64,000 nt of DNA, taken from NCBI GenBank assembly GCA_033032175.1, contig CM065331.1, forward strand, positions 9,114,370 through 9,178,369. Reading direction: 5' to 3'. Below the pieces are notes generated by a model that had not been told where the DNA came from, did not search any database, and worked only from the letters and a program-made list of their open reading frames with translations. A program made the position numbers and the translations under genes. The DNA comes from Saturnia japonica (lineage: Eukaryota; Arthropoda; Insecta; Lepidoptera; Saturniidae). This document shows, piece after piece, positions 1,180 through 44,654 of the stretch; the stretch's first letter is position 1, and each line of letters opens with the position of its first letter.

Positions 1180-4167
1180 ATGTGTGTATTAATATCTGAA
1201 GGTGGATGCACTCTTGGTACAGGCACAACAACGCCTAATATAACTCCTGAAGAATCTATCACAAGTACAAAATTACCATCAACTACAACAGAAGATGCAG
1301 AAATAATTACTTCCACTTTAGAAGCCACTCATAGCACTCCAACCTGGCCTCACACAACAGTGACCGATGATGACAGCATCATAACTAATCAGCCCTCCAC
1401 CACAGAAGGCGGTGAGAGCTCAGTGACCGCTGAACATACCACCACAGATGACGGCAGTACTACTAATTGGCCTCACACAACAGTGACCGATGATGATAGC
1501 ATCATAACTAACCAGCCCTCCACCACAGAAGGCGGTGTAAGCTCAGTGACCACTGAATATGCCACCACAGATTACGGCAGTACTACTACTTGGCCTCACA
1601 CAACAGGGACTGATGATGATAGCATCATTACTAATCAGCCCTCCACCACAGATGGCGGTGAGAGCTCAGTGACTACTGAATATGCCACCACAGATGGCGG
1701 CAGTACTACTACTTGGCCTCACACAACAGTGACCGATGATGATAGCATCATTACTAATCAGCCCTCCACCACAGAAGGCGGTGAGAGCTCAATGACCACT
1801 GAATATGGCACCACAGATGGCTACAGTACTATTACTTGGCCCCACACAACAGTGACTGATGATGATAGCATCATTACAAATCAGCCCTCCACCACAGAAG
1901 GCGGTGAGAGCTCAGTGACTACTGAATATGCCACCACAGATGGCGACAGTACTATTACTTGGCCCCACACAACAGTGACTGATGATGATAGCATCATTAC
2001 TAATCAGCCCTCCACCACAGATGGCGGTGAGAGCTCAGTGACTACTGAATATGCCACCACAGATGGCGGCAGTACTACTACTTGGCCTCACACAACAGTG
2101 ACCGATGATGATAGCAACATTACTAATCAGCCCTCCACCACAGAAGGCGGTGAGAGCTCAATGACCACTGAATATGGCACCACAGATGGCTACAGTACTA
2201 TTACTTGGCCCCACACAACAGTGACTGATGATGACAGCATCATTACTAATCAGCCCTCCACCACAGATGGCGGTGAGAGCTCAGTGACTACTGAATATAC
2301 CACCACTGATGACGGCAGTACTACTACTTGGCCCCACACAACAGTGACTGATGATGATAGCATCATTACTAATCAGCCCTCCACCACAGATGGCGGTGAG
2401 AGCTCAGTGACTACTGAATATGCCACCACTGATGACGGCAGTACTACTACTTGGCCCCACACAACAGCGACTGATGATGATAACATCATTACTAATCAGC
2501 CCTCCACCACAGATGGCGGTGAGAGCTCAGTGACTACTGAATATGCCACCACTGATGACGACAGTACTACTACTTCGCCCCACACAACAGTGACTGATGA
2601 TGATAACATCATTACTAATCAGCCCTCCACCACAGATGGCGGTGAGAGCTCAGTGACTACTGAATATGCCACCACTGATGACGGCAGTACTACTACTTGG
2701 CCTCACACAACAGTGACTGATGATGATAGCATCATTACTAATCAGCCCTCCACCACAGATGGCGGTGAGAGTTCAGTGACTACTGAATATGCCACCACAG
2801 ATGGCGACAGTACTATTACTTGGCCCCACACAACAGTGACTGATGATGATAGCATCATTACTAATCAGCCCTCCACCACAGATGGCGGTGAGAGCTCAGT
2901 GACTACTGAATATGCCACCACTGATGACGACAGTACTACTACTTCACCCCACACAACAGTGACTGATGATGATAACATCATTACTAATCAGCCCTCCACT
3001 ACAGAAGGCGGTGAGAGCTCAATGACCACTGAATATGGCACCACAGATGGCTACAGTACTATTACTTGGCCCCACACAACAGTGACTGATGATGATAGCA
3101 TCATTACTAATCAGCCCTCCACCACAGATGGCGGTGAGAGCTCAGTGACTACTGAATATGCCACCACAGATGGCGACAGTACTATTACTTGGCCCCACAC
3201 AATAGTGACTGATGATGATAGCATAATTACTAATCAGCCCTCCACCACAGATGGCGGTGAGAGCTCAGTAACTACTGAATATGCCACCACTGATGACGGC
3301 AGTACTACTACTTGGCCCCACATAACAGTGACTGATGATGATAACATCATTACTAATCAGCCCTCCACCACAGATGGCGGTGAGAGCTCAGTGACTACTG
3401 AATATGCCACCACTGATGACGACAGTACTACTACTTCGCTCCACACAACAGTGACTGATGATGATAACGTAATTACTAATCAGCCCTCCACCACAGAAGG
3501 CGGTGAGAGCTCAGTGACTACTGAATATACCACCACAGATGGCGGTGAGAGCTCAGTGACTACTGAATATGCCACCACAGATGGCGACAGTACTATTACT
3601 TGGCCCCACACAACAGTGACTGATGATGATAGCATCATTACTAATCAGCCCTCCACCACAGATGGCGGTGAGAGCTCAGTGACTACTGAATATGCCACCA
3701 CTGATGACGACAGTACTACTACTTCGCCCCACACAACAGTGACTGATGATGATAACATCATTACTAACCAGCCCTCCACCACAGATGGCGGTGAGAGCTC
3801 AGTGACTACTGAATATACCACCACTGATGACGGCAGTACTACTACTTGGCCTCAAACAACAGTGACGGACGATGATGGAGCAACAACTATTCAGCAAACT
3901 ACAGTCGTACCTTCAGAAGCTACCACCACTGAAAATACCTGGACTCCCACAGAATTAGATGAAAACACTTCTACTACCGGTGCATCGACTACTGAAATAT
4001 ACGAAACGACTACTAATCTGGAAGTGACGACACCCGCAATCTGTCCGCCAGGCTCCTTCGGTAATGTGCCACATCCAGATCGTTGTGATGCCTTTTTCAT
4101 GTGCCTCGGTGGTACCGCCATAAAGGTTGAATGCCCTCAAGGTTTCGAGTTTGATATAGTGGCGAAT
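1180..4167 (+). CDS. Mucin gene exon A (20-unit repeat exon)
   Basis: The acceptor ttacag ends at 1179 and the donor gtaagt starts at 4168; 996 codons, phase 0 at both ends. The exon opens MCVLISEGGCTLG, which is the Cys5-Cys6 half of a domain that begins off-window; this Met is internal and not a start. From 1345 to 3846 it holds twenty tandem copies of a 41-residue unit beginning WPHTTVTDDDSIITNQPSTT. One copy, around 3470-3610, carries an extra 14-residue (42-bp) partial duplication: 2502 bp = 20 x 123 + 42. The exon ends with the Cys1-Cys4 half (CPPGSFGNVPHPDRC ...). It is by far the longest exon of the gene. Confidence 0.88.
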
Positions 4168-7100
4168 GTAAGTTGACATTTTTTATTATTATATAGGTTT
4201 ATTAGTCTTATTGTCTCAAAAAATTTAATAATCTGAACAGTTTTCATAAATTTCAAAATATGCTAAGCTAGAAATGTTTTCATTTCTAGAACAAGAATCC
4301 ACTGTATGTAGCAGAATATAACAATTATATTCTAAATTTCATATATTGAATTTAGCATAAATACATCTTATTAATAAATGTGCTCAGAAAAAGTGTAAAA
4401 GTAAACACAAGTATATTTATTTCAAAACACTAAAGTTACCGTGTGCACATTCCAGGGGTGCATCTTAATAGCTGAAGGAGGCTGCACCTTAGGTCCAGCT
4501 GCAAGTGCTTCAACAACAGAAGGCGATGGAAGTTCACCCACAACGGAACATGTTACAACACCCTACCCTACAACAGATCCTGGTACTACAACGTGGCCAC
4601 AAACAACAGTGACCGATGATGATAGCATCATTACTAATCAGCCCTCCACCACAGAAGTTGGTGAGAGCTCAGTGACAACTGAATTTGGCACCACAGATGG
4701 CGGCAGTACTATTACTTGGCCCCACACAACAGTGACGGATGATGATAGCATCATTACTAATCAGCCCTCCACCACAGATAGCGGTGAGAGCTCAGTGACT
4801 ACTGAATATGCCACCACTGATGACGGCAGTACTACTACTTCGCTCCACACAACAGTGACTGATGATGATAACATAATTACTAATCAGCCCTCCACCACAG
4901 ATGGCGGTGAGAGCTCAGTGACTACTGAATATGCCACCACTGATGACGGCAGTACTACTACTTGGCCCCACACAACAGTGACTGATGATGATAACATAAT
5001 TACTAATCAGCCCTCCACCACAGATGGCGGTGAGAGCTCAGTGACTACTGAATATGCCACCACTGATGACGGCAGTACTACTACTTGGCCTCACACAACA
5101 GTGACGGATGATGATAGCATCATTACTAATCAGCCCACCACCACAGAAGGCGGTGAGAGCTCAATGACCACTGAATATGGCACCACAAATGGCGATAGTA
5201 CTACTACTTGGCCTCAAACAACAGTGACGGACGATGATGGAGCAACAACTATTCAGCAAACTACAGTCGTACCTTCAGAAGCTACCACCGCTGAAAATAC
5301 TTGGGCTCCCACAGACATAGATGAAAACACTTCTACTACCGGTGCGTCGACTACGGAAATATACGAAACGACAACTAACTTGGAAGTGACGACACCCGCA
5401 ATCTGTCCGCCAGGCTCCTTCGGTAATGTGCCACATCCAGATCGTTGTGATGCCTTTTTCATGTGCCTTGGTGGTACCGCCATAAAGGTTGAATGCCCTC
5501 AAGGTTTCGAGTTTGATATAGTAGCGAATGTAAGTTGACATTTTTTATTATTATCTAGGTTTATTAATTTTATTGTCTCAAAAAATTATATAATCTGAAC
5601 TGTTTTCATAAATTTCGACATATGCTAGGCTACAAAATGTTTTCATTTCTAGAATAAGAATCCACTCTACGTAGGAGGACATAATAATTATATTCCAAAT
5701 TTGATGTATTTCATTTATCATTATTAATAAATGTGTTCAGAAAAATGTAAAAGTAAACACAAGTATATTTATTTCAAAACACTAAAGTTAGCGTGTGCAC
5801 ATTCCAGGGGTGCATCTTAATAGCTGAAGGAGGCTGCACCTTAGGTCCAGCTGCAAGTGCTTCAACAACAGAAGGCGATGGAAGTTCACCCACAACGGAA
5901 TATGTTACAACACCCTACCCTACAACAGATCCTGGTACTACAACGTGGCCACAAACAACAGTGACCGATGATGATAGCATCATTACTAATCAGCCCTCCA
6001 CCACAGATAGCGGTGAGAGCTCAGTGACTACTGAATATGCCACCACTGATGACGGCAGTACAACTTCTTGGCCTCACACAACAGTGACCGATGATGATAG
6101 CATCATTACTAATCAGCCCTCTACCACAGATGGCGGTGAGAGCTCAGTGACTACTGAATATGCCACCACAGATGGTGACAGTACTATTACTTGGCCCCAC
6201 ACAACAGTGACTGATGATGATAGCATCATTACTAATCAGCCCTCCACCACAGATGGCGGTGAGAGCTCAGTGACTACTGAATATGCCACCACAGATGACG
6301 GCAGTACTACTACTGCACCCCATACAACAGTGACTGAGGATGATAGCATCATTACTAATCAGCCCTCCACCACAGAAGGCGGTGAGAGCTCAATGACCAC
6401 TGAATATGGCACCACAATGGGCGACAGTACTACTACTTGGCCTCAAACAACAGTGACGGACGATGATGGAGCAACAACTATTCAGCAAACTACAGTCGTA
6501 CCTTCAGAAGCTACCACCGCTGAAAATACTTGGGCTCCAACAGACATAGATGAAAACACTTCTACTACCGGTGCATCGACTACTGAAATATACGAAACGA
6601 CTACTAATCTGGAAGTGACGACACCCGCAATCTGTCCGCCAGGCTCCTTCGGTAATGTGCCACATCCAGATCGTTGTGATGCCTTTTTCATGTGCCTTGG
6701 TGGTACCGCCATAAAGGTTGAATGCCCTCAAGGTTTCGAGTTTGATATAGTGGCGAATGTAAGTTGACATTTTTTATTATTATCTAGGTTTATTAGTTTT
6801 ATTGTCTCAAAAAATTAAATAATCTGAACAGTTTTCATAAATTTCAACATATGCTAAGCTAGAAATGTTCTCATTTCTAGAACAAGAATCCACTCTATGT
6901 AGCAGAATATAATAATTATATTCCAAATTTCATATATTGAATTTAGCATAAATACATCTTATTAATAAATGTGCTCAGAAAAAGTGAAAAGTAAACACAA
7001 GTATATTTATTTCAAAACACTAAAGTTAGCGTGTGCACATTCCAGGGGTGCATCTTAATAGCTGAAGGAGGCTGCACCTTAGGTCCAGCTGCAAGTGCTT

Positions 7101-10100
7101 CAACAACAGAAGGCGATGGAAGTTCACCAACAACGGAATATGTTACAACACCCTACCCTACAACAGATCCTGGTACTACAACGTGGCCCCACACAACAGT
7201 GACGGATGATGATAGCATCATTACTAATCAGCCCTCCACCACAGATAGCGGTGAGAGCTCAGTGACTACTGAATATGCCACCACTGATGACGGCAGTACT
7301 ACTACTTCGCCCCACACAACAGTGACTGATGATGATAACATAATTACTAATCAGCCCTCCACCACAGATGGCGGTGAGAGCTCAGTGACTACTGAATATG
7401 CCACCACTGATGACGACAGTACTACTACTTCACCCCACACAACAGTGACTGATGATGATAACATCATTACTAATCAGCCCTCCACCACAGATGGCGGTGA
7501 GAGCTCAGTGACTACTGAATATGCCACCACTGATGACGACAGTACTACTACTTCGCCCCACACAACAGTGACTGATGATGATAACATCATTACTAACCAG
7601 CCCTCCACCACAGATGGCGGTGAGAGCTCTGTGACTACTGAATATACCACCACTGATGACGGCAGTACTACTACTTGGCCTCAAACAACAGTGACGGACG
7701 ATGATGGAGCAACAACTATTCAGCAAACTACAGTCGTACCTTCAGAATCTACCACCACTGAAAATACCTGGACTCCCACAGAATTAGATGAAAACACTTC
7801 TACTACCGGTGCATCGACTACTGAAATATACGAAACGACTACTAATCTGGAAGTGACGACACCTGCAATCTGTCCGCCAGGCTCCTTCGGTAATGTGCCA
7901 CATCCAGATCGTTGTGATGCCTTTTTCATGTGCCTCGGTGGTACCGCCATAAAGGTTGAATGCCCTCAAGGTTTCGAGTTTGATATAGTGGCGAATGTAA
8001 GATGACATTTTTTATAATTATCTAGGTTTATTAGTCTTATTGTCTCAAAAAATTTAATAATATGAACAGTTTTCATAAATTTCAAAATATGCTAAGCTAG
8101 AAATGTTTTCATTTCTAGAACAAGAATCCACTGTATGTAGCAGAATATAACAATTATATTCTAAATTTCATATATTGAATTTAGCATAAATACATCTTAT
8201 TAATAAATGTGCTCAGAAAAAGTGTAAAAGTAAACACAAGTATATTTATTTCAAAACACTAAAGTTAGCGTGTGCACATTCCAGGGGTGCATCTTAATAG
8301 CTGAAGGAGGCTGCACCTTAGGTCCAGCTGCAAGTGCTTCAACAACAGAAGGCGATGGAAATTCACCAACAACGGAATATGTTACAACACCCTACCCTAC
8401 AACAGATCCTGGTACTACAACGTGGCCCCACACAACAGTGACGGATGATGATAGCATCATTACTAATCAGCCCTCCACCACAGATAGCGGTGAGAGCTCA
8501 GTGACTACTGAATATGCCACCACTGATGACGGCAGTACTACTACTTCGCTCCACACAACAGTGACTGATGATGATAACATAATTACTAATCAGCCCTCCA
8601 CCACAGATGGCGGTGAGAGCTCAGTGACTACTGAATATGCCACCACTGATGACGGCAGTACTACTACTTGGCCCCACACAACAGTGACTGATGATGATAA
8701 CATAATTACTAATCAGCCCTCCACCACAGATGGCGGTGAGAGCTCAGTGACTACTGAATATGCCACCACTGATGACGACAGTACTACTACTTCGCCCCAC
8801 ACAACAATGACTGATGATGATAACATCATTACTAACCAGCCCACCACCACAGATGGCGGTGAGAGCTCAGTGACTACTGAATATACCACCACTGATGACG
8901 GCATTACTACTACTTGGCCTCAAACAACAGTGACGGACGATGATGGAGCAACAACTATTCAGCAAACTACAGTCGTACCTTCAGAAGCTACCACCACTGA
9001 AAATACCTGGACTCCCACAGAATTAGATGAAAACACTTCTACTACCGGTGCATCGACTACTGAAATATACGAAACGACTACTAATCTGGAAGTGACGACA
9101 CCTGCAATCTGTCCGCCAGGCTCCTTCGGTAATGTGCCACATCCAGATCGTTGTGATGCCTTTTTCATGTGCCTCGGTGGTACCGCCATAAAGGTTGAAT
9201 GCCCTCAAGGTTTCGAGTTTGATATAGTGGCGAATGTAAGTTGACATTTTTTATAATTATCTAGGTTTATTAGTCTTATTGTCTCAAAAAATTTAATAAT
9301 CTGAACAGTTTTCATAAATTTCAACATATGCTAAGCTAGAAATGTTTTCATTTCTAGAACAAGAATCCACTGTATGTAGCAGAATATAACAATTATATTC
9401 CAAATTTCATATATTGAATTTAGCATAAATACATCTTATTAATAAATGTGCTCAGAAAAAGTGTAAAAGTAAACACAAGTATATTTATTTCAAAACACTA
9501 AAGTTACCGTGTGCACATTCCAGGGGTGCATCTTAATAGCTGAAGGAGGCTGCACCTTAGGTCCAGCTGCAAGTGCTTCAACAACAGAAGGCGATGGAAG
9601 TTCACCCACAACGGAATATGTTACAACACCCTACCCTACAACAGATCCTGGTACTACAACGTGGCCCCACACAACAGTGACGGATGATGATAGCATCATT
9701 ACTAATCAGCCCTCCACCACAGATAGCGGTGAGAGCTCAGTGACTACTGAATATGCCACCACTGATGACGGCAGTACTACTACTTCGCCCCACACAACAG
9801 TGACTGATGATGATAACATAATTACTAATCAGCCCTCCACCACAGATGGCGGTGAGAGCTCAGTGACTACTGAATATGCCACCACTGATGACGGCAGTAC
9901 TACTACTTGGCCTCACACAACAGTGACGGATGATGATAGCATCATTACTAATCAGCCCACCACCACAGAAGGCGGTGAGAGCTCAGTGACTACTGAATAT
10001 GGCACCACAAATGGTGACAGTACTACTACTTGGCCTCAAACAACAATGACGGACGATGATGGAGCAACAACTATTCAGCAAACTACAGTCGTACCTTCAG

Positions 10101-13100
10101 AAGCTACCACCGCTGAAAATACTTGGGCTCCAACAGACATAGATGAAAACACTTCTACTACCGGTGCATCGACTACTGAAATATACGAAACGACTACTAA
10201 TCTGGAAGTGACGACACCCGCAATCTGTCCGCCAGGCTCCTTCGGTAATGTGCCACATCCAGATCGTTGTGATGCCTTTTTCATGTGCCTTGGTGGTACC
10301 GCCATAAAGGTTGAATGCCCGCAAGGTTTCGAGTTTGATATAGTAGCGAATGTAAGTTGACATTTTTTATTATTATCTAGGTTTATTAATTTTATTGTCT
10401 CAAAAAATTATATAATCTGAACAGTTTTCATAAATTTCGACATATGCTAGGCTAGAAATGTTTTCATTTCTAGAATAAGAATCCACTCTACGTAGGAGGA
10501 CATAATAATTATATTCCAAATTTGATGTATTTGATTTATCATAAATACATCTTATTAATAAATGTGCTCAGAAAAAGTGTAAAAGTAAACACAAGTATAT
10601 TTATTTCAAAACACTAAAGTTAGCGTGTGCACATTCCAGGGTTGCATCTTAATAGCTGAAGGAGGCTGCACCTTAGGTCCAGCTGCAAGTGCTTCAACAA
10701 CAGAAGGCGATGGAAGTTCACCCACAACGGAATATGTTACAACACCCTACCCTACAATAGATCCTGGTACTACAACGTGGCCCCACACAACAGTGACGGA
10801 TGATGATAGCATCATTACTAATCAGCCCTCCACCACAGATAGCGGTGAGAGCTCAGTGACTACTGAATATGCCACCACTGATGACGGCAATACTACTACT
10901 TCGCCCCACACAACAGTGACTGATGATGATAACATAATTACTAATCAGCCCTCCACCACAGATGGCGGTGAGAGCTCAGTGACTACTGAATATGCCACCA
11001 CTGATGACGGCAGTACTACTACTTGGCCTCACACAACAGTGACGGATGATGATAGCATCATTACTAATCAGCCCACCACCACAGAAGGCGGTGAGAGCTC
11101 AGTGACTACTGAATATGCCACCACTAATGACGGCAGTACTACTACTTGGCCTCACACAACAGTGACGGATGATGATAGCATCATTACTAATCAGCCCTCC
11201 ACCACAGAAGGCGGTGAGAGCTCAATGACCACTGAATATGGCACCACAAATGGCGACAGTACTACTACTTGGCCTCAAACAACAATGACGGACGATGATG
11301 GAGCAACAACTATTCAGCAAACTACAGTCGCACCTTCAGAAGCTACCACCGCTGAAAATACTTGGGCTCCCACAGACATAGATGAAAACACTTCTACTAC
11401 CGGTGCGTCGACTACGGAAATATACGAAACGACTACTAACTTGGAAGTGACGACACCCGCAATCTGTCCGCCAGGCTCCTTCGGTAATGTGCCACATCCA
11501 GATCGTTGTGATGCCTTTTTCATGTGCCTTGGTGGTACCGCCATAAAGGTTGAATGCCCTCAAGGTTTCGAGTTTGATATAGTGGCGAATGTAAGTTGAC
11601 ATTTTTTATTATTATCTAGGTTTATTAGTTTTATTGTCTCAAAAAATTTAATAATCTGAACAGTTTTCATAAATTTCAACATATGCTAAGCTAGAAATGT
11701 TTTCATTTCTAGAACAAGAATCCACTGTATGTAGCAGAATATAACAATTATATTCCAAATTTCATATATTGAATTTAGCATAAATACATCTTATTAATAA
11801 ATGTGCTCAACAAAAAGTGTAAAAGTAAACACAACGTATATTTATTTCAAAACCACTAAACGTTACCGTGTGCACAAACACAGTGGATGATGATGCATCA
11901 TTACTAATAGCTCAGAATTGGAGGCCAGTGACACCTAATTAGGACACAGATGCCAGTACTGCAACGTGCTTCACACAACAGAGAGGCGATGATGATAGAT
12001 TTACTAATCAGCCCCCACAGATGCGGTGAGAGCTCATGTGACAACTGACCCTATGCCTACAACAGATCCTGGTGACAGTACTATACGTTGGCCCCACACA
12101 ACAGTGACGGATGATGATAGCATAATTACTAATCAGCCCTCCACCACAGATAGCGGTGAGAGCTCAGTGACTACTGAATATGCCACCACTGATGACGGCA
12201 GTACTACTACTTCGGCCCCACACAACAGTGACGGATGATGATGAGCATACATTACTAATCAGCCCTCCACCACAGATGGCGGTGAGAGCTCAGTGACTAC
12301 TGAATATGGCCCACACACATGATGACGGCAGTACTACTACTTGGCCTCACACAACAGTGACGGATGATGATAGCAACACTTACTAATCAGTGACCCGACC
12401 ACCACAGCAAGGCGTGTCAGAGCTCAGTGACTACTTCGTAATATGGCACACACAAATGGTGACAGTACTACTACTGTGGACCGTCAAATCAATGCCCGCA
12501 AGTTTCGACGTTTGATATCAGATGATGTGAGCAACATTTTTTACTTATTTCTAGCTAAACTTACAGTCGTAACCTTTCAGATAAAGTACGACCGTTCTGA
12601 AAATTACATATGCTAGGTCTCCAACAGACATAGCATGAAAACATTTACTAATCTACACGGTGCATCGATAAACTGAAATATACGTAAACGACTACTATAT
12701 TCTGAAGTGACGACACCCGCAATCTAGCCGCCTAGGCACATTCAGGTAATGTGCCATCATTCCAGATCGTTGATGAGTGCACTTTTTCATGTCGCCTTAG
12801 TGGTACCGCCATAAAAGGATGAAGTCCCGCAAGGATATTCGATGTTATGATACCTAGTAGCGAATGTCACAAGTTGACATTTTTTATATAGTGACTAGGT
12901 ATTATACTAATTTTATTGTCTCACAACAGAAGGCATGGATCACATCAGTGAACTAGTTTCCACTACAATGATCGACAGTACTACTACTGGCCTCACACAA
13001 CAGTGACTGATGATGATAGCATCATCTACTAATAAGCCCTCCACTCTACAGAAGGTAGTGAGAGCTCAGTGACACTGAATTATGCATTCCACAGATGGCA

Positions 13101-32574: not shown

Positions 32575-33045
32575 ACTAGCTGTGCCCGCGGCTTCGCTCA
32601 CGTGTACTACAGAATGCCCGCGCGAATCTTGTTTCCCGGCTGACGGATATTTTAAAGACTTTTTAATGTCTACAACTATTTAGTACCGTAATTTGATATA
32701 TGTCAAGGTTTCCTCAGTGTAAGCCATTTAAGCGCCCGAATTGATTCACCATGACCAGATTTTTTTTCATTTGTACGGAACCAACCCTAATTCTTTTTCT
32801 AAAATAAAAGTAGCCTAAGTTACTCCCTATAAATTTAGCTATCTTACAGTGAAAGTCCCGTCAAAATCGGTCCAACCCTTTCGGAGATTACCGGGGCAAA
32901 CAGACAGACAGACAAAAAAAATTTTAAATGGTTTTTTTTTGTTACAGGTATCGTATATAACTTTCATAAGCATTTAGTAAAAAGCTGTTATTTTGACATT
33001 ACAAACAGACACTTCAATTTCATGCACATTACCTATAGATAGATG
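32575..33045 (-). repeat. Repeat family 3 copy, inverted
   Basis: Begins 'agctgtgcccgcggcttcgc' on the + strand. Lies between the two mucin genes. Confidence 0.72.
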
Positions 33046-34176
33046 AAATCCTAGTACCATTTGATTGAGAGTTGGAGAAACTTAAATTAATATAAATAAA
33101 ACACCGAAATAAATGTATAAATAATATTCAATAATTAATAATAGCTGATAATAATTTATTATAATATAAAACTTATATTATATATTTTACATATTTACAT
33201 ATATTTGAATACTATAAACTAAATTTCACTGTTCATATATAAAATAATATAATAAAATATTGTTTTTAAATAACTGTATTTTAACGTTATTTATTACATA
33301 CAAATAAATTATATACTGTAAATAATTATTCTTTAGGCGAATAAAAGGGTTTTCATGCTGGTTGGTACTGCAAGCATTTCTGAAACGAGTTTTTATAATT
33401 AAATTGAATATTGGTACCATCTGTAGAAATAATGCACTCTTTTGAAACAATAATGAAATATCTAGAAAAGTCTAGAACTCCGGAAGTAAAATAAGAAGTC
33501 ACGGTTGCACGGAACACGCACGCATTGAAACCTTATCGGTCCAACTACGTAAGCTTAGACTTAGATTTTCAATAGATTGTATCATTTTGACCGTAAGGAA
33601 TGAAAAAGGTTTTCTATTATTAGGATCAATGAGAATATCACACAAGCGAAGATGCATTTAAAATGTGTATATGCGTGTAAAAGACGTAGCAAGCAAGAAG
33701 GGAGAGGGGCACCACGTGTTATAACCGTCCATCTCTAGTAAACAAGTGTGCTTGCACCCACGCCCGCGAAATCTCCGTTCCCTCCGCAGGGGACGGGCGA
33801 TTAACTTTGTTCCCGCATACCCGCCACGTACCCCCTTTCCAGCTGCGACTCAGGCCTAAGTTCGTTCTTCCAGCCCACTGCTTGCACTACCTTCAAGATA
33901 CTGCACTTCACACTTGCACACCACACATGTTCTTTATGGGACCTTTTTTTCTTATTTTTGACTAGTTAATCTCAGACCAAATTGACAGATAACTAAATTA
34001 ATTTATACGATTTTTCTTTGCTATTTCCACCTGAAAAACATTAACGGTTGTTTCGTCTTTACGTTGTTTCTTTTTAGGCGGAAGTAGCCAAACCAAGCGG
34101 AGGACGGTAACGAGGACTTCACTCTTTATAACGTCATATTTGTTTCATTTGACACCTCTTTCTCTTATAACACTAC

Positions 34177-34182
34177 TTTATT
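34177..34182 (-). promoter_or_regulatory. Poly-A signal of mucin 2
   Basis: AATAAA on the - strand, 77 bp past the TAA stop at 34259. Confidence 0.6.
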
Positions 34183-34258
34183 AATATGCGATGTATATAT
34201 AGAAATATAAATTATTACTAACCTACAGAATTCTTTAGAACTGGTCCCTTTATCCGTA

Positions 34259-34306
34259 TTAACCCTTTTGTGGGGTGCAATTGGCTGCCTTAGGAGGTAA
34301 GCATAT
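34259..34306 (-). CDS. Mucin 2 terminal exon (48 bp)
   Basis: Acceptor aatcattccag, then ICLPPKAANCTPQKG and TAA. It supplies Cys5-Cys6 of domain 6 with the standard x12/x7 spacing. Same size and layout as the terminal exon of the facing mucin gene. Confidence 0.82.
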   Translation of the reverse strand: MCLPPKAANCTPQKG

Positions 34307-37300
34307 CTGGAATGATTAACACAGTGATATTATGAAGATAAAGTGTATGTAGTAAATGATTTAAAATATATAAGTAGAAGGGTCTTCACACAAGAGCAAT
34401 ATTCTAAAACGGTGGTAATTTCTTTGTTACTTACCAATAGGTCTAAGTTCAAGAGAAAACGAAAGATTCGAATTTAATAATCGCGAAAAAACTGCAAACT
34501 GAATATCTAACCTACCAATTTTTTCCTCATTTATGATGTCCTAAAAGTTGTGAAAAAAGCGTAAGTGATTATGAAGTTATTAATGTTGCCTAATGTGTAC
34601 CGAACGTGTATCATCACTTATATGTATAACGCTGTAATAATTGTGGAAACAAGATAGTGGTTTACAACTCGTTAAAATTGTGAAAACAAGCATAAGTGTT
34701 TGTAAAGTTGCCATTAGTGTATTGTCATTAACAACTCGTAAAAAATTGTGAAAACAAGCATATGTGATTGTAAAGTTGCCACTAGTGTATTGTCATTAAC
34801 AACTCGTTTAAAAAATTGTGAAAACAAGCATAAGTGATTATAAAGTTGCCATTAGTGAATTGTCATTAACAACTCGTTTAAAAAAATCGTGAAAACAAGC
34901 ATAAAAAATGTGAAGTTGCCATTAGTGTATTTTCATTTACAACTCTCTAAAATTGTGAAAATAAGCATAAGTGATTTTAGTTACTGTTAGCGTATTTTTG
35001 ATTATTTGTAAACGTGTATTGTAATAGTTTTTTTTAAGAAAAATTTAATAATCTTACCCGTAATTCAGAACTGAGTTCAAAATTGTATGGGCAGGTTTCT
35101 AATTTTGCGTTGCCATGTATGCACCAGTAATAATTCCTACATGATTCTGGATCCGGTACGATGTACGACAATAAAGAATGTTTATCACACAGTGAGTCCG
35201 AACCCGGCATTGTTCTTGGTTTGTTTGAAGTTGTCATAAGTTTATGCGTCGTTGTTGGTTTATGCGTAATTATTGGTTCATGCGTCGTTGTTACTTTTGA
35301 AGTAGTTTTAGGTCTTATAGTGATTATAGGGCCAACTGTAGTAGTCGTCATGTTACAATTAGCTTCGTCATTCGGTAAGCATCTCTAAAAAAATATTTTA
35401 TTAAACGTTTTAAATAGCATCTATGCTTATATTTATAGCATTGGTAATGTATTTTTGAAGTGAAAACTTCTATAGGATGGTTTGTATAGGTATTAAATTC
35501 ATGTAAGTCACCACCGACATGGTCACTCGACGTGTTAACGAAAAACCGCGTCTTTGTAGCTATATAACCTAAAAATTAAGAACATCATTTTTTTTTTTTT
35601 AATACTTACAGTTACTATGCAATGCGTATTTTATAGTAATTTAGGAGTTATTTTACTAACGTGATAAAACAAATTTGTTGTGTGAAACAGTTTTGATTTA
35701 CAAGTTTTAATTTACGATCAAAGAATTAATTTGGATATCCGAAAATAACAACTGTTTGTTTTCACTTCTGTCGGCAGTCCTCGTGACTGCTTTGTCTTTT
35801 TTTTAAATTATAATTTTCGATATATTAGTAAATAATAAAAAATCATTTTACCTTCAACTTTGGACTGAATTGCATATTATTCCAACACATTTCACGCAGG
35901 GCTTTACCGTAAATGCAAATATAAAAATATCTACAATCTAAAGGATCAGACAAGAGGTACAGTGACGTCTGATTAAAGCACATTAAGTCAGGCTTTGGTA
36001 CTGGTTTTGGAGTGGTTGTTCTTTTGTGAGTAGTGGTCGGTTTCCGAGTGGTTGTTGGTTTTAAAATTGTAGTGTTGCAGCCAGCTAATTGAGGTGGTTC
36101 ACAGAACTGTTAATAAAATAAGATATTATATTATATTAATTTAAAACTTGATAAAAAATTAAAAAAGAAACTTAAGCCGCGCATAATTTAATAATTGTCA
36201 GTAGCGCATAGTAAGTCCATGAAATTTCCCAATATCTCCAATTTACTGAGCAATAAGCATCTATGTTGACTTCAAGGACTATTCACTATTTATATTATTC
36301 TAAAGAAGCACATTTAATTATGTTTCATGTATATTTTACTATTGTACTATTTATTTATTACTAGCGGTCGCCCATTGTTCGAAATTCGTCCAGCGACTTT
36401 TTAATCATAAGTCTATTTTCTGTTTGACATTTGCAGTATGAACCTAAACAATGAATATTATATCACTTGCTGTCACTTTTCATTGAGTGACAATGTCAAT
36501 ATTTTAGGGGATCTAAGTTCAATGGCACTAGTCTGATTAGGATTCACAGTATTAATTAATTTAATTTAATATATTAGTAACAGATAAATTTTAGCTTTCT
36601 GCACTCCTTCTCCATATTAACTTTAACCATGCCAAATCTCAGTCTTCCGTGCACGCAATACGCTTAAAAAGGGGTAAGAAAGTTTTTGCTTCAGGTATTA
36701 ATGTAACGATTATACATTTTTATTATTTTTCCAGAGCCTATATGATATTTACTCCACAGAATTTGTTGATAGAAAGTGACTTTTTTACAGATATATTTAT
36801 AACATGCAGCGAATGTTTCAATAGTACCAATTATTTTACATGATTTTCATTATATTGTAGTTCGAAGATCTAAAATTGATATTACACAAGAAATTTCCCC
36901 TTACCTTACAAGGTTTATGATTTAGGTAAGAGTATATGTAATAGGATTAGGGTGTAGGTAAATCCTACGATGAAACGGTGCTTTTTGTGAAGGAAACAAC
37001 GTGATGGATCAAGGTGATCTAGGTAAGGTATTTTGAGCTTTTTTTAAGGTGAAACACAATTGGGCATTTATTGCAAAACTGCTATCGATATACCTTTCAA
37101 CTAGGTTTAGCGTATTGCCATGTTCTTCAGGATTTCCATTAAATATCATATGTTATTGTGATTACACACTAGCCTATTTTTTGAAGTGAAAACATCTTTA
37201 TCATCGTTGTGATTTGAAACGCGATGAAACGAAAAAGCGACACTAAACAGAGACAAACACATACCCATATATGAGTTACCCTACGAAAGAAGAGATAGAA

Positions 37301-40300
37301 TACAATATACAGTGTTTCCTATTAACTCGGTAACGTCTCTGTACGTGTTAGGTATGTGTCTGCGCTTCCGTATTACGAGGCCTTGGGAAAAAGCGTCATA
37401 GCAAGAGTGATGTATTGTTCACGTGTATCTTTTATGTTTTCTACCGCTTGTGAACTACACATATGTTTTTTTTCTGCGCCGTCTATCAAATTACAAAAGT
37501 TACAAAAAGCAGTTTAGCTAGGGGATGTTAGTGTGGTCACTGCCAAGAAATATTCTACCAGGTCTTGAATGGCATTATACTTATATGAATATAACTTACC
37601 AGCTCTTTCGGACTGAATTCAAAGTCGTAAGGGCATTTGAGATGAGTTTCTTTCCAATTCAGACAACGGTAGTAATGAGTACAACTCTTAGGATCTGGTA
37701 AGAGATAGAAGAAGTACGGTTTGTCGCAGACTATATGATCCGGTTTCACTGTTGGTTTGCTAGTAGTTGTTGACCATTTGGGTTTCCGAGTAATTATTGG
37801 TTTTAAAGTTGTAGTTGTGTTGCATCCAGCTAATTGAGGTGGTTCACAGAACTGTATATAAAACAAGCTAAATTATTAAATAGGAAACAAAAACCCGACT
37901 GCAACAAAAACACTTGACTATTTTTTGCTTTTTATTTGATTTCAAGACCTCGTATTTAATATTATATAGTCTATGCCACTCCCACAATTAAGACGAATGT
38001 AACGATACCTCGTATGCTAAAATCCATCAAGCCGTTTAGGTTACAGAACGAATTAGACATACATTAAAAAAATTACCCTCCTTTTTCGCAATCGGGTAAT
38101 GAGTTATAATTTGAAATTTATTCAAAACTTGATACAGAAAAAAAAAAACTTAATCCACGCTATAAAGTAGCATCTAGTACATCCAAGAAATTTCCTAATA
38201 TCTCCAACTGACCGACCCATAAGCATATGAATTGATTTCAAGGTCTATTAATTATTTATTTAATTCATTGGAAGCATTTAATTCCTTCTTCAAAGAGTCC
38301 TCTTTTATTTATTTCCCAGAAACCACGTGAAATTGGTTCCGCAGAACTTGTGAACGTATATATTTATAACATGTAGTGAATTTTTCAAAAGTAATATATT
38401 GTAATACGCAGCGTGGCGACACTCAAGAAGTGTTTGTTGTGGTTGACTTTTTCTCTTAGATTTTTAATTACACTGTACTTTAATCTGCCCCCCCCCCCCT
38501 TTAACTACTCCCATGGTCATATATTTAATTAAACTTCAATACACGTAACGATATTGATGATAATTATATGAATGTGACTTACCAGCTCTGACGGACTGAA
38601 TTCAAACCCATAAGGGCATTTTATTTGAGTGCTTTTCCAATTCAGACAACGATAATAATGAGTACAACTCTTAGGATCTGGTACGAGATAAAAGAAGTAC
38701 GGTTTGTCGCAAACTATGTTATTCGGCTTCACTGTTGGTTTGCTAGTAGTTGTTGATTTTTCAGTTGTTGTGTGTTTAGGTGTAGTCGTTGGTTTGTGAG
38801 TAGTTGTAGGTTTTCGTGTAGTGGTTGATTTGTGAGTAGTAGTTGGTTTGTAAGTAGTTGTTGGTGTGTGGGTAGAATTAGGTTTGTGAGTAGTCGTTGG
38901 TTCGTGAGTAGTTGATGGTTTTTGTGTAGTTGTTGATTTGTGCGTGGTCGTTGATGAGTGAGTAGTACTTGGCTTGTGCGTCGTAGATGGTATGTGGGTT
39001 GTAGTTGGTTCATGAGTAGTCGGTTTGTGAGTAGTCGTTGGTTCATAAGTAGTTGTGGTTTTTTGTGTAGTAGATAACTTATGCGTAGTTGTTGGTATGT
39101 GGGTAGTAGTTGGTTCGGGAGTAGTTGTTGGTTTTTGTGTAGTAGTTAGTTTGTGCGTAGTCGTTGGCTTGTGCGTAGTTGATTTATGAGTAGTCGTTGG
39201 TTTATGAGTGGTTGTAGGTCTTTGTGTCGTTGTTGGTTCATGAGTAGTCGTTGGTTCGTGAGTAGTCGTTGGTTTATGAGTGGTGGTTGGTTTGTTAGTA
39301 GTTATTGGTTCGTGAGTAGTCGTTGGTTTATGAGTATTTGTCGGTCTTTGGGTTGTTGTTGGTTCATGAGTTTTCGTTGGTTCCTGAGTAGTTGTTGATT
39401 TATGTGTAGTAGTTGTTTTGTGCGTAGTTGTCGATATGTGAACAGTAGTTGGTTTGTAAGTAGTTGTTGGTTCATGTGTAGTAGTAGGCTTTCGTGTAGT
39501 AGTTGGTTTATGAGTACTTGTAGATTTTCGTGGAGTAGCTGCTTTTTTAGTTGTAGGTTTTTGAGTAGTTGTTGATTTGTGCGTAGTAGTTGATATGTGA
39601 GTAGTGGTTGGTTTGTGACTAGTTGTAGGTTTTCGTGTATTAGTTGGGTTGTAAGTAGTTGTTGGTTCATGAGTAGTTGTTGTTAGTGCTACACAATGGG
39701 CGTCATTACGCGGTAAGCAGGTCTGTAAAATTATTTTACAACTATTAAATATTTTAATGTATCAATATTTTATAAAATAATATACAAGTTAGAAATGGTT
39801 GACAATCTAAAATTTTATATTAATAATGTTGGTCTGAGATAATTTATTAAATATAAAACAAAATTAACAAAGTCGTAAACTTTCGAAAGGCAAATACGAA
39901 CATAGCAAATACAATTTGGTCGAATATTCATTAAGACCTACCTTTGTGCCAAATTTAAGGTGCTCTATAGGTTTTGATAATGTTTCAGTGAGGGGGGCCT
40001 TGTCTATAGGTACTTATTGCATGATCTATATCTTTTTTTGCAGCAATATGAACCTTAGTATTCGATATTAATATTAACTTTGTACTTCAAGCCGTTTTCA
40101 ATATAAACAGACGCTGGCGGAGGCGAGGTACTACATATGATTACAGGGGCGGGTTGTGTAGCTGTGTAGGAGAGCTGACACCAATTTTTGGGTAGGTATT
40201 TGAGGCAAGCTGAAAACTTGTCACATACCTCTCCTATTATATCCCAACACGGAATTGCAGACCTGGCTCGTGAGGAGCGGGGCTAAATCAACCCCTACAT

Positions 40301-43300
40301 TTTTTTTAATTTATTAATTTTTTCCCCCAAAAATATATTTGAGGCAATACGCAATTTATATATGTTGCAATGTAATACTTAAAGAATACGAGAAAAAATA
40401 AGCCAGACAATTTAATCGGGGATTTAACATTGCCAGACGCGTGCAAAAATTTTTTGCAAAAAATTATAAAAATGTTTTTGAGGCAGCTGGAAATTTTTAA
40501 TGGAGTGTTATTTATAACTAAAAAATAAGATTCCCAAAAAGACAGATCATTTCGGTGGGGCTCTCTATCTGCCAGGTGATCAAACAAATAATGGATGGGT
40601 ACAAGCTGTAGTGTGAGAGAGAGCGCATATCGACAGCTGTCTTCGTTCTTGCTTGCCGCGTTACTATTGGCTCTGGCGAGGCCACGTGACTTACAATAAC
40701 TCATGAGGTTTCTCTAGCTGCGCCGCTGTTACGTAATTTATAACTAATGACAAAATATTATATTACCTACTTACTAGAATTTTAAATTTGTTTTTTCTTT
40801 TTTAAACTAAGATTTCTTTTTTTATTAAAAAGTAAACAATCGTTCCTTACTAAAATATACATCACACTTTTGTAACTGAAAAGAAAACCCAAGTAGAAAT
40901 AATTTACATAAAAATTTACAAAATGTATATGCAGTAAGATATTATGATGAAAAGATAATAAGGACAGTGTAAGTACGTAGTCCAATACCTAAGTAGATAA
41001 CCCAAGAAATACAGTCGGAGGGCAGCCCTAGTGCATGCTTATTTATCGAGCGGCTGCAGGTAATTATTTCAAAAACACTGCCGAGATAACATACTGTTTA
41101 CTTTAGTGTATTGTGTAGTGTAGGCAACGAGCTACTTCGTCCCCGCCAACGTTTGTCACATAGGACGGTCGCACACGAACTTGTACCACTACAAATTTGT
41201 GTTACTCGTCATACAAATTTGTACAAGTTTGACTCAACACTCGTCACATCGCGTCGAGTAGCGTGAAGTGTTAAAATTTTGTTATTTCTGCTTTAAACTC
41301 ACCAGTAATATAGGGCTGAATTCAAGATCTCCTGTGCAGGTATTCCTAATGGGGTATCCTAAAATACACCAGTAGTAGTGATTACAAGACTCTGGGTCTG
41401 GGACACGGTAGTACAAGAAGACGTCGCGGAAGCATAAATGTTGTTCAAATGATGTAATTTCTTTAAAGCTATTTGTTCTCCGATCCATTATCATATTTGT
41501 GATGCACACAGCACTTGTGTTTGATATACATTCCTGCGAAATATAATTTAAATTAAATACAAAAAGTAACTAGTGTCCGACTAAAACGCGTCGGTTTTTC
41601 AGCCGAAACCGAATTTTCGGCCTCGATTTCAGTTTTGACCGAAATTGAACATTTTAGCATGTCCAAATTTATGTTGTGTCTCAAATTAAGTGTATTTTTA
41701 CTATTTTTTACATATTATACAGATAGTTAACTAGTGTTAAATGATATAAAAACAATAATTGATATATGTAACAAAAAATATTATTTATTCATGTTACATT
41801 AATAATTTAACATGTTCCAAAGTAACAGGTATATCTACATGTTAAAGGCTTTTGTTAAACTAATAAGTGATTATTGTTTATTACTTTCGTTCATTGTCAA
41901 TTGTTGATATAACATAAATAAATATTTAATGTACGTATGTAAATAATAGTAAAAATACACTTATTTTCAATACCCATATAAATAGAAAAGGATAACTAAC
42001 ATATCAACGCACAGCCTAAAATACTGTGGCTAGGACCATAATTTTTTTCATACGAGTTCCTTTTAAACTGTAGGTGAACACTAAGGAAGGATTTTTGGAA
42101 ATTCAGCGCCTATGGTGATGATAAAAAGGGTGAAAATTTGTATGAAAATCCGTTATTTTTGATGATAGATCTATGAAAATTGGTATTAAGCAATTCAGTT
42201 AGAAAGTAAACAAGGCAATTTTTAACAAAAAATAAAACCAATTTCAACGGTTTTCAAGAGTTTCCTGGTGCATCTTCGAAGTTGAAGGTCCAATACTAAT
42301 GAAATTAAAATGGAACCAAAAACATCCCTTATCAAACAAAAAAAGAATTATCCAAATCGGTTCATAAACACAGAAGTTATGATTGAACATCCATAAAAAA
42401 AAACACATTATACATTCGAATTAAGTAAACTGCGTATTTTTTTCGTCGGTTATTAATATGGGACATAACTATGACGTAACGAACTCCGCAGGAAACGCTC
42501 TAGTACAATATAAATTTTAACATGTCTTGATTATGTTTTCAGTTACGATTTCGGCCGCAGGCCTCGTGGCGCTGTGGTAGTCAACGCTACTATTGAGCCG
42601 AGAAGTCGCGGGTTCGATCCCCGCCCATGACTGACTTTGTCTGATGAGCATAAATGTCAGTTGTGTGGGTCTGGGTGTTAAATATCTATATATGTATGTA
42701 TATCAGCTGTTTAGTTACCATATTACAAGCTTTGCTTAGTTTGGAATTAAATGACCGTGTGTGAAATTGTGTCCTCATATATATTTATTCGGTATCGGTT
42801 TCAACTGAAAATCCTGTTACGTTCCGACACTAATAATAATATAAATTGATATTAGTGACTTTTTAAAGTATGTTTAAATAACAATTTAAGGACGTATATT
42901 AAAAAATATTTTTATTATACACAATAAAAAAATAACAGTAAAATGAATTCACATTTTAATTACTGTTGGCTAATTTCATTATTTCGTACTTTTGTGACAT
43001 AATACGCGCGTAGCTCTTAATTGGGGCCACGACAACCAGAGTTGCCTATCTGCTTTTTTCAACCTATCCATTCAGCCAAAAGACATCCACCACTTAACAT
43101 AGATAGACCTACCCCAAAGATAACCACAATGACAAGTCCTGCGGCTAGTCCTGCAACCTTCACTAGGTCGTCGGTCCACCTTCCACGCTACGTCTTTTTT
43201 CGATAAATTCACCTATTAACATAATTATTCATAATCTAAACATGTGCTTTTATAAAACCACAATCGCCTGAACTTAATGGCACATGTGTAGTGACTAAGT

Positions 43301-44654
43301 ATCTAAGATATATATATATATATATTCTCTTGATTTTATGTACATTTAAACTTGCTAGCGATCTCCCTAAGCTCTAAATTCGACCATCGACTTTTTGATC
43401 ATAGACTATTTTGTTTGACATTTGCAGTATTCATGAACCTAAAGTACTTGCCGTCATTTTTCGTTGAGTGAAAATGTCAATATTTAAGGGGGTCTAAGTT
43501 CAATGGCACTTGTCGGGTTAGGATTCGCAGTATTAATTTATTTAATTTAATATATTAGTAACAGATATTATAAATCAATTTTAGCTTTCTGCACTCTTTC
43601 TCCATATAAACTTTAACCATGCCAAATCAGTCTTCCGTGCACGCAATACGCTTAAAAAGGTACCGAAAGCTTTTGCTTCACGTATTAATATATAGATTTA
43701 CACTACTTATTTTTAGCATGTCAGAGCAACTTTTAATGAAGGCAAAGCCATTATGGTTTTGTAAAAGCAAATTTTTAGGTTATGAATATGTTAATAGGTA
43801 AATTTATCCAAAAAAAAAAAGACGCAGGTGGACCGACGACCTAGTGAAGGTTGTAGGAACTCTCTGAGTGCAAGCAGCGCAGAACCGATCATTGTGGTTG
43901 GTTGATCCCACGTGAATATAGAATCAACCTGCGAGACGAAACGAATAACGAAATTACGATAAAAATATCCAGCGAAGGACGTATATTCACAATGCCATGC
44001 CAACTCACCGTTACTTTCTGTTGTAATTGCTGAACGGCGCCGATGTGGTTCAGCTATTTATATTCAAAGGTCCTGAATCTTCACGCACCCACTGTATACA
44101 GACACACTGGCTTGATAGTTTACAGTTCTAGAGCACGAGGTTCATGAGGAAACGTCCGAGGCGCAAGAGTTTTGCACCGTGCGGAAGCGACAGTGTTCCC
44201 ACGAGATTGTCGTGAGAGCCGGTGCTGACAACGACAAATCGAAACAAAACTAACCCCCTGGATATCATAATTTTAGCGACGAAAAAAATAATTAAATTTA
44301 AACTACCGACTTTGATTGGTAATTGCTGCAACAGTGGTGATCTTTAGGGTAGGCTTATCTCCAGCAATGTACGTCTTCTAGGCCACTCTGTTTCTCGTGG
44401 CCACAGTTTTGCCTTATACTAAACTCGCTAAAAGAAAACCAGTGGGACATTTCACTGACCGTTATTAATTACCATTTCATAAATATCGAAAGTGAATCCA
44501 TCCGGACAGTCTGACTCCGTATCAATTGCATTCTCACAGGCTAAATATTTCTGGCAGGATGTCGTGTGAGGCAGATTCCCCTTGTACCCTTCATCGCAAG
44601 GGCTGCTCTGAGCCGATGCTACTAAGGCCAGGAGGATAGGCAGCCACTGTTCTC
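34259..44654 (-). CDS. Second peritrophin-type chitin-binding mucin, six chitin-binding domains
   Basis: Seven coding exons (2,435 nt, about 811 residues), listed below; the initiator exon is not resolved. It starts with a signal peptide and carries six CBM14/peritrophin-A domains, each of pattern C-x13..15-C-x5-C-x9-C-x12-C-x7-C and each split by a phase-0 intron one residue before Cys5. This is the same design as the + strand mucin it faces tail-to-tail, about 2.8 kb away. The large third exon is a basic TTTHKP/TTTHEP repeat mucin segment. The stop is TAA at 34259-34261, with a poly-A signal 77 bp downstream. The product is likely a secreted peritrophic-matrix protein; tissue is inferred, family is seen. 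Confidence 0.85.
34664..34995 (+). repeat. 67-71 bp minisatellite in the last intron of mucin 2
   Basis: About 4.5 copies beginning acaactcg at 34664, 34731, 34799, 34869 and 34940. Each contains 'ttgtgaaaacaagcataagt' and an 'agttgccattagtgtattgt' block. Non-coding. Confidence 0.8.
35058..35384 (-). CDS. Mucin 2 exon 7
   Basis: 109 codons, phase 0/0, acceptor tttttttag, donor gtaaga. RCLPNDEANC completes domain 5. A linker of about 45 residues (TTHEPIITHKPTTTHK) is followed by the half domain LCDKHSLLSYIVPDPESC. Confidence 0.85.
35852..36106 (-). CDS. Mucin 2 exon 6
   Basis: 85 codons, phase 0/0, donor gtaaaa. The head FCEPPQLAGC is identical to that of the previous exon, followed by a short RKPTTTHK linker. 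The half domain is diverged: MCFNQTSLYLLSDPLDC, ending CWNNMQFSPKLK. Confidence 0.84.
36357..36706 (+). repeat. Repeat family 5 copy
   Basis: In the mucin 2 intron between its fifth and sixth exons; antisense to the gene. Confidence 0.7.
37600..37851 (-). CDS. Mucin 2 exon 5
   Basis: 84 codons, phase 0/0, acceptor atatacag, donor gtaagt. FCEPPQLAGC completes domain 3, a Thr/Lys/Pro linker follows, then the half domain VCDKPYFFYLLPDPKSC. It is a close duplicate of the 3' end of the preceding repeat exon. Confidence 0.85.
38583..39722 (-). CDS. Mucin 2 repeat exon (Thr-Pro-His-Lys repeats)
   Basis: 380 codons, phase 0/0, acceptor attttacag, donor gtaagt. TCLPRNDAHC completes domain 2. About 310 residues of short imperfect repeats follow (TTTHKP, TTTHEP, TTTHKS, TTTQKP, TTTRKP), then the Cys1-Cys4 half VCDKPYFFYLVPDPKSC of domain 3. 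The frame is open throughout although the DNA is a simple-sequence tract; other-frame ORFs in it (38729-39046, 39302-39670) are shadows. Lys is mostly followed by Pro. Confidence 0.84.
40975..41215 (+). repeat. Inverted long-range repeat with 56140-56345
   Basis: The segment from 'ctaagtagataacccaagaa' through 'gccgagataacatactgttt' to 'cgcacacgaacttgtac' returns in reverse complement at 56140-56345, 15 kb away. Function unknown; probably a dispersed element. Confidence 0.6.
41303..41533 (-). CDS. Mucin 2 exon 3
   Basis: 77 codons, phase 0/0, acceptor atttcgcag, donor gtgagt. ECISNTSAVC completes domain 1. A short linker without mucin repeats follows, then the Cys1-Cys4 half of domain 2 (LCFRDVFLYYRVPDPESC). 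Confidence 0.84.
41573..42830. mobile_element. Non-autonomous DNA transposon with terminal inverted repeats
   Basis: The left end gtgtccgactaaaac ... tttttcagccgaaaccga matches the reverse complement of the right end (gtgtcggaac ... attttcagttgaaaccga). It is flanked by TA on both sides (41571-41572, 42831-42832), as for Tc1/mariner-like MITEs. No transposase frame. Contains the SINE at 42562-42790. Confidence 0.6.
42562..42790 (+). mobile_element. tRNA-derived SINE nested in the transposon
   Basis: tRNA-like head with a clear B box (cgcgggttcgatccccgc near 42607-42624) and a D-arm-like start (cgctgtggtagtc), followed by an unrelated body. The acceptor stem does not pair, so it is not a functional tRNA gene. 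Confidence 0.65.
43352..43697 (+). repeat. Repeat family 5 copy
   Basis: In the large 5' intron of mucin 2, between the two RTE fragments. Confidence 0.7.
43815..43905 (+). mobile_element. RTE-type LINE C-terminal fragment
   Basis: Reads RRRWTDDLVKVVGT, then a stop, VQAAQNRSLW; the motif is typical of the C-terminus of RTE-like endonuclease/reverse transcriptases. A second fragment of the same motif (RWTDDLVKVAG) lies on the - strand near 43110-43205. Confidence 0.65.
44473..44654 (-). CDS. Mucin 2 signal-peptide exon and first half domain
   Basis: Acceptor gttctttag on the - strand, donor gtaatt. Two bases complete a codon from an upstream exon, then EQWLPILLALVASAQSSPC. The hydrophobic stretch ending ASA is a classical signal peptide. 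The Cys1-Cys4 half follows (PCDEGYKGNLPHTTSC ... CPDGFTFDIYEM). No in-frame ATG lies in the exon, so a short upstream exon ending in phase 1 must supply it; I could not identify that exon convincingly. Confidence 0.82.

What the first reader, a model, noticed from the sequence alone, without database searches (positions are those of the whole stretch)
1180..44654. Chitin-binding domains assembled only at exon junctions, in both mucin genes
In both genes every chitin-binding domain is split by a phase-0 intron exactly one residue before Cys5, and every internal exon is half domain, mucin, half domain. Spliced spacing is invariant from Cys2 on (x5, x9, x12, x7) in all 22 domains that can be read, except across the frameshifted exon K. 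Because cassettes are symmetric (0/0), any exon can be duplicated, lost or skipped without breaking frame or a domain. That makes it a self-templating system for growing or alternatively splicing a matrix protein.
Basis: partly seen in the sequence, partly recalled or inferred. Interest (0 to 1): 0.75.

Follow-up and report, generated by a model that had tools for sequence, protein, structure and literature searches.

The report
Gut-lining mucin genes with splice-assembled domains
In two neighbouring moth or butterfly genes for mucin-like, chitin-binding proteins, every chitin-binding domain is encoded as two halves on different exons, so exons can be added or skipped on paper without breaking the protein, and predicted protein variants of a related moth look as if that happens.

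Summary
In the window 22 of 23 exon joins rebuild a CBM14 chitin-binding domain spaced x5,x9,x12,x7, split by a phase-0 intron one residue before Cys5; the miss is frame-shifted exon K. Gene 1 begins 9 kb upstream; four upstream joins also fit (26 of 27). Both genes run half-domain, then half-mucin-half cassettes, then half-domain and stop.

The intron is probably ancestral: seven of 126 other CBM14 hits in this genome show the same donor position, six with a matching acceptor half; 110 of 126 run on past Cys5. Tandem copying of exon plus intron explains the uniformity.

Relatives support the junction and suggest skipping. Five of seven Pectinophora gossypiella isoforms differ by whole cassettes, placing the junction within two residues of the predicted site if it is uniform. 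Two carry a hybrid cassette, and a Manduca pair differs inside mucin.

"Self-templating" goes too far: ordinary duplication of symmetric exons suffices, and splicing in this species is untested. Window 11.88-14.50 kb looks like assembly noise over two more cassettes.

New variant of a known kind.

The parts
1180..4167 (+). Gene 1 exon A: C-half domain, mucin (about 18 copies of a 123-nt repeat), N-half domain
4456..5529 (+). Gene 1 exon B, same layout
5808..6758 (+). Gene 1 exon C
7046..7996 (+). Gene 1 exon D
8285..9235 (+). Gene 1 exon E
9524..10351 (+). Gene 1 exon F
10640..11590 (+). Gene 1 exon G
11880..14495 (+). Garbled stretch covering about two more cassettes; insertion-dominated noise, probably assembly
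14616..15443 (+). Gene 1 exon H
15732..16559 (+). Gene 1 exon I
16773..17477 (+). Gene 1 exon J
18041..18636 (+). Gene 1 exon K; frame shifted by one base just before its donor, so its true end is uncertain
20336..21163 (+). Gene 1 exon L
22540..23229 (+). Gene 1 exon M
24761..25306 (+). Gene 1 exon N
25714..26118 (+). Gene 1 exon O
27206..27454 (+). Gene 1 exon P
29069..29362 (+). Gene 1 exon Q
31402..31449 (+). Gene 1 last exon: C-half domain, then stop
44473..44654 (-). Gene 2 exon a: hydrophobic leader and N-half domain; acceptor phase 1, exon with the ATG not found
41303..41533 (-). Gene 2 exon b, cassette
38583..39722 (-). Gene 2 exon c, cassette with long mucin
37600..37851 (-). Gene 2 exon d, cassette
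35852..36106 (-). Gene 2 exon e, cassette
35058..35384 (-). Gene 2 exon f, cassette
34259..34306 (-). Gene 2 last exon: C-half domain, then stop

Best explanation
These are two lepidopteran mucins of peritrophic-matrix type: CBM14 chitin-binding domains alternating with Thr-rich mucin. An ancestral CBM14 gene carried a phase-0 intron one residue before Cys5. Tandem duplication of the unit 'exon plus flanking intron', most simply by unequal exchange between neighbouring copies, multiplied it. Each copied exon therefore starts with the Cys5-Cys6 half of one domain and ends with the Cys1-Cys4 half of the next, and each domain is closed only by splicing. Growth has two levels: whole 0/0 cassettes, and in-frame 123-nt mucin repeats inside exons. 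Skipping, adding or losing a cassette leaves frame and domain intact, so exon skipping should be tolerated. Shown from sequence: the exon anatomy, the same donor position in other genes of the genome, recent exon-plus-intron copies, and junctions in relatives that fit. Inferred: splicing itself (no RNA seen), unequal exchange as the copying step, gut-lining role, and any real use of skipping.
For: 26 of 27 joins fit. Seven introns of the young cassettes are 90.6-100% identical in pairs, two of them identical. Exons B-J and L are exactly 828 + k x 123 nt, matching a 123-nt repeat. Seven other hits share the donor position, six with an acceptor half before Cys5. Nine adjacent gene 1 domains (A-B to I-J) are 98-100% identical to a sibling and at most 63% to 90 domains of 11 relatives. 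Pectinophora isoforms place the junction at -2..0 residues if uniform. Of 88 homologues scanned, two Eumeta entries begin or end exactly at the site, and an Arctia and an Achroia entry run on past it as an unread intron would.
Against: No RNA for this species. Only proteins, not genes, of other species could be searched. The C12 hit lacks a clear acceptor half. Four other CBM14 hits are split at a different phase-0 point, 8 residues after Cys4, so introns near Cys5 have more than one origin or have moved. The Manduca pair and the hybrid cassette in two Pectinophora isoforms do not fit.
Confidence: 0.8

Rival explanations
1. The split layout is kept by selection because it lets the insect make many mucin lengths from one gene by skipping cassettes (functional alternative splicing), rather than being a passive trace of duplication.
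For: Five of seven Pectinophora isoforms are clean ordered subsets of cassettes; Amyelois isoforms X2 and X6 differ by one 138-residue block whose possible ends include the site (range -64..+13). 224 of 224 forward joins tested in gene 1 keep the spacing.
Against: Isoforms over near-identical repeats can be alignment artefacts: X7 and X8 differ by a single residue, and X7 and X17 contain a hybrid cassette. The Manduca pair breaks inside mucin. A sister gene keeps unsplit domains beside split ones.
Confidence: 0.25
2. The introns were inserted independently at a donor-like (proto-splice) site before Cys5 in many domains.
For: In five of six unsplit domains counted in L013/L014 the two codons at the site begin with GT after CAA, so a suitable site exists.
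Against: The young cassettes share their intron sequences at 90.6-100%, so those were copied, not inserted anew.
Confidence: 0.04
3. Gene 1 is decaying: exon K and the 11.88-14.50 kb stretch are real lesions.
For: K is out of frame; the stretch has no open exon.
Against: The stretch aligns to two cassettes with 524 inserted, 19 deleted and 83 mismatched bases over 2,520 template bases (my sums of the table), and is perfect again from 14,496: this looks like unpolished long-read sequence. The alignment used low gap costs and a best-of-64 template, so the exact numbers are rough. All other listed exons are open, and a J-to-L join bypassing K keeps the spacing (among the 224 joins).
Confidence: 0.06

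Closest known systems
Insect intestinal mucins and other CBM14 (peritrophin-A) peritrophic matrix proteins
   Same: CBM14 domains alternating with Thr-rich mucin; lepidopteran relatives named mucin-2-like or mucin-5AC-like by their sources
   Different: Here each domain is split by an intron at the same point; most CBM14 hits elsewhere in this genome are not (110 of 126 run past Cys5). Expression and location untested
Exon shuffling of symmetric class 1-1 modules (Patthy 2021, PMC8001218, passages seen)
   Same: Exon units with introns of equal phase at both ends, so they can be copied or skipped in frame
   Different: Class 0-0 instead of 1-1, and cut inside the domain instead of at its border; copied within one gene, not moved between genes as far as seen
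Repeat-protein genes with exon units out of register with the folded repeat (recalled, no call)
   Same: Exon unit is shifted against the structural unit and spreads by tandem duplication
   Different: Here a disulfide-bonded domain is completed across each junction, with long mucin between

Membership tests
CBM14 / peritrophin-A domain (PF01607) | Profile score above Pfam's cut-off after splicing | tested here: met
   10 of 10 spliced domains given (of 26 that can be joined) score 34.4-55.5 bits against a cut-off of 22.1
CBM14 / peritrophin-A domain (PF01607) | Six cysteines with the family's spacing | tested here: met
   26 of 27 joins x5,x9,x12,x7; K-L fails by frame
CBM14 / peritrophin-A domain (PF01607) | Binds chitin | not testable with these tools
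   No assay
Insect intestinal mucin / peritrophic matrix mucin | Chitin-binding domains alternating with Thr/Pro-rich mucin stretches | tested here: met
   Exon translations
Insect intestinal mucin / peritrophic matrix mucin | Signal peptide | tested here: inconclusive
   Hydrophobic leaders seen by eye in gene 1 e1 and gene 2 exon a; no predictor run, no ATG found for gene 2
Insect intestinal mucin / peritrophic matrix mucin | Made in midgut and present in the peritrophic matrix, O-glycosylated | not testable with these tools
   No expression or protein data
Class 1-1 exon-shuffled module | Phase-1 introns at both domain borders | tested here: not met
   Introns are phase 0 and lie inside the domain; definition from PMC8001218 passages
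Alternatively spliced tandem cassettes | Transcripts that include or omit single cassettes | tested here: inconclusive
   Isoforms of relatives only: Pectinophora 5 of 7 clean, Amyelois compatible, Manduca not; none for this species

The most novel reading that the evidence does not exclude
Gut-lining mucins of Lepidoptera are splice-assembled polymers: the chitin-binding domain is cut at one conserved point so that any cassette can join any later one, and each lineage both expands its cassette set by exon-plus-intron duplication and expresses many mucin lengths by skipping. Unsplit domains in a sister gene keep a donor-like GTTTG or GTATG at the same point, so even there an alternative donor could shorten the protein while still closing a domain.
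Probability: 0.25. Interest if true: 0.65.

Novelty: new variant of a known kind. Interest (0 to 1): 0.5.

Why it matters
It is a clear case of a class 0-0 exon unit, cut inside a domain, that has spread by duplication, whereas the review seen here describes class 1-1 modules cut at domain borders as the rule. If the skipping is real, the make-up of the gut lining of moths could be tuned by splicing and by cassette number, which one long-read cDNA experiment would test.

Tried and rejected
Pseudogene reading of the garbled stretch: not preferred, because the noise is insertion-dominated and ends abruptly. Independent intron gain: rejected for the young cassettes. A GC-AG donor in exon K: considered before looking, dropped when the sequence showed an ordinary GTAAGT out of phase. 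A second gene of gene 2's type: a half-domain of gene 2 found 20 places at E <= 0.01, of which 5 are gene 2, 14 gene 1 and one on C4. Rfam found nothing in the window at its gathering scores. A blastn step inside one search printed nothing and was replaced by a pairwise alignment.

Literature: ten searches of the held open-access library listed no paper whose title or abstract start describes this layout. Only listings were seen, except passages of PMC8001218. Subscription journals are mostly not covered.

Known faults in my own calls: gene 2 exon a was entered with a wrong start, so the six of 21 forward joins that involve it failed there; the a-b join was checked correctly, the other five were not rerun. 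In one search the N-half count for exon K is meaningless because of its frame shift. The genome-wide CBM14 table scored 150 of 185 candidates, so its counts are lower bounds; 'past Cys5' means that the match reaches profile position 46 or more. The kinds of split among the 16 shorter hits were read by eye.

Full report
WHERE IT IS. The window lies at C28:9114370-9178369 of a 580 Mb genome in 402 contigs. Gene 1 runs on + and gene 2 on -, converging.

CHECKING THE OBSERVATION. Both strands were scanned for 'AG, one codon, Cys, x7, Cys' and 'Cys x5 Cys x9 Cys x11 GT', which gave the exon ends directly. Gene 1 does not start in the window: a coding exon with an ATG and a hydrophobic leader lies in L011 (ATG at L011:962, about 9.0 kb before the window), followed by exons at L011:3442-3723, 4644-4934 and 7185-9299. 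In the window follow exons A to Q and a last exon of a half-domain and stop at 31402. Gene 2 has exon a (44654-44473), five cassettes and a last exon at 34306. Joins: 20 of 21 in gene 1 and 6 of 6 in gene 2 have x5,x9,x12,x7; in the window alone 22 of 23. Ten spliced domains, of ten given, pass Pfam's cut-off for CBM_14. The G-H join is counted, but the garbled stretch lies between these two exons.

THE GARBLED STRETCH. From about 11,880 to 14,495 the sequence resembles two more cassettes (best of 64 template pairs from exons B-I: intron, exon F, intron, exon H, intron). Over the whole 3,025-base alignment I sum 524 inserted, 19 deleted and 83 mismatched bases. Intact cassettes aligned the same way show 33-63 mismatches and 4-5 gaps in each direction per 1,239 bases. 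At 14,496 the match becomes perfect at once. I read this as unpolished long-read sequence over two real cassettes; raw reads are needed, and the low gap costs used make the numbers rough. The single extra base in K could have the same origin; that is not shown.

SYMMETRY. Of 25 internal exons of the two genes 24 are multiples of three; K is not. Of 224 forward joins i<j in gene 1 (K left out as donor) 224 rebuild the spacing. In gene 2, 15 of 21 did; the six misses all involve exon a, entered wrongly in that call, and a-b was later shown right. So on paper cassettes can be skipped freely.

HOW IT GREW. Introns A-B, B-C, C-D, D-E, E-F, F-G and H-I are 278-288 bases long and 90.6-100% identical in pairs over aligned bases; F-G and H-I are identical. 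Two intron types, seen in E-F and F-G, are interspersed along the array, which suggests that blocks of several cassettes were copied. Exons B-J and L are exactly 828 + k x 123 nt long, matching the 123-nt tandem repeat inside them: growth at two levels. The nine domains from A-B to I-J are 98-100% identical to a sibling and at most 63% to 90 domains of 11 proteins of other species; in Pectinophora isoform X4 eight of ten domains are 94-100% identical to a sibling and all ten at most 67% to the window's. In Spodoptera frugiperda P0048, by contrast, siblings reach only 79%. So arrays expanded, or were homogenised, separately in some lineages and not in all.

WHERE THE INTRON COMES FROM. A CBM_14 search of the whole genome gave 146 matches (150 of 185 candidates scored). 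Of 20 in genes 1 and 2 none reaches Cys5; of 126 elsewhere 110 do. Of the other 16, read by eye, seven show a phase-0 donor 11 residues after Cys4, as in the window (C28 four, C18 two, C12 one); four show a phase-0 donor 8 residues after Cys4 (C3 two, C4, C2); one is phase 2 (C8), one phase 1 (C16); three are irregular or frame-shifted. For six of the seven an acceptor half one residue before Cys5 follows; for C12 only x8-spaced candidates appeared. A further gene at C28:9.2606-9.2737 Mb (-) has exons 9273745-9273290, 9266625-9265324 and 9264468-9263212, all multiples of three without stops, that begin and end at this junction, and a last exon from 9261344. Three of these four hold two whole unsplit domains each. 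In five of six unsplit domains counted there, the codons before and at Cys5 read GTT TGT, GTT TGC or GTA TGT after CAA, resembling a splice donor. The simplest history is one old intron shared by several genes, multiplied by duplication in genes 1 and 2, and accompanied by in-exon duplication in the sister gene.

OTHER SPECIES. Only proteins could be searched. Seven Pectinophora gossypiella isoforms (X4, X6, X7, X8, X12, X14, X17) share one contig length and their sequence blocks, so I take them for one gene. Cut in silico one residue before each Cys5 they fall into 13 cassettes in constant order, and five are clean subsets. The cutting itself assumes the site. The test free of that assumption is how far each junction could slide: -2..+20, -44..0, -44..+41, -2..+5 and -42..+43 residues for the five kinds of skip; if the position is the same in each, only -2..0 remains. 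Against: X7 and X8 differ by one residue, and X7 and X17 contain a hybrid cassette; two comparisons with X17 need a break at +6..+39, which in such repeats may be misassembly. Further isoforms exist in the clusters (P0052 stands for 10 sequences) and were not seen. Amyelois X2 and X6 differ by one 138-residue block, range -64..+13. A Manduca pair (P0023, P0027) differs, apart from its N-terminus, by a 112-residue block with ends in mucin, which does not fit. Ends of entries give separate hints: of 88 proteins scanned, Eumeta P0002 begins one residue before Cys5, Eumeta P0011 ends 11 residues after Cys4, and Arctia P0007 and Achroia P0033 run 6 and 7 residues past the same point, each starting with Val, as an unspliced GT donor would read; P0009 and P0031 begin 7 and 6 residues before Cys5 and are ambiguous.

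WHAT IT MEANS. By the usual CBM14 disulfide pairing (Cys1-Cys3, Cys2-Cys6, Cys4-Cys5; recalled, no call) two of three bonds would cross the exon junction, so neither half could close alone. The layout follows from one ancestral intron plus duplication; no special growth device is needed. That symmetric exons can be skipped in frame is general (PMC8001218, passages), but that review finds class 1-1 modules with introns at domain borders, so a class 0-0 unit cut inside the domain departs from the usual kind. Ten searches of the held library listed no description of this layout (see tried and rejected).

VERDICT. Observation confirmed; interpretation partly supported; an ordinary mechanism behind an unusual and cleanly testable layout.

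Noticed in passing
window 11880-14495: Garbled sequence with mostly inserted bases over two cassettes, clean again from 14,496; looks like unpolished long-read assembly.
   Followed up: partly
L013/L014, C28:9.2606-9.2737 Mb (-): A sister gene uses the same junction but keeps whole unsplit domains inside three of four exons read; five of six of those carry donor-like GT codons at the junction point.
   Followed up: partly
window 58403-59435 (+): Broken open frames that by eye resemble a LINE-type reverse transcriptase (motif recalled, no family search).
   Followed up: no
window 34674-34976: A 70-nt tandem repeat, 4.4 copies, in the last intron of gene 2.
   Followed up: no
L020 and L021, C18:10.87 and 10.90 Mb (-): Two places about 33 kb apart with seven unsplit CBM14 domains each and the same codons before Cys5: a recent gene copy or an assembly duplicate.
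   Followed up: no
L012:1028 and L012:5034 (-): The same short stretch occurs twice 4,006 bases apart just downstream of the window, suggesting a tandem duplication.
   Followed up: no
C3:12.83 Mb, C4:19.16 Mb, C2:23.26 Mb (L029, L033, L034, L032): Other CBM14 genes have a phase-0 donor 8 residues after Cys4, three residues before the point seen in the window: a second intron position near Cys5.
   Followed up: no
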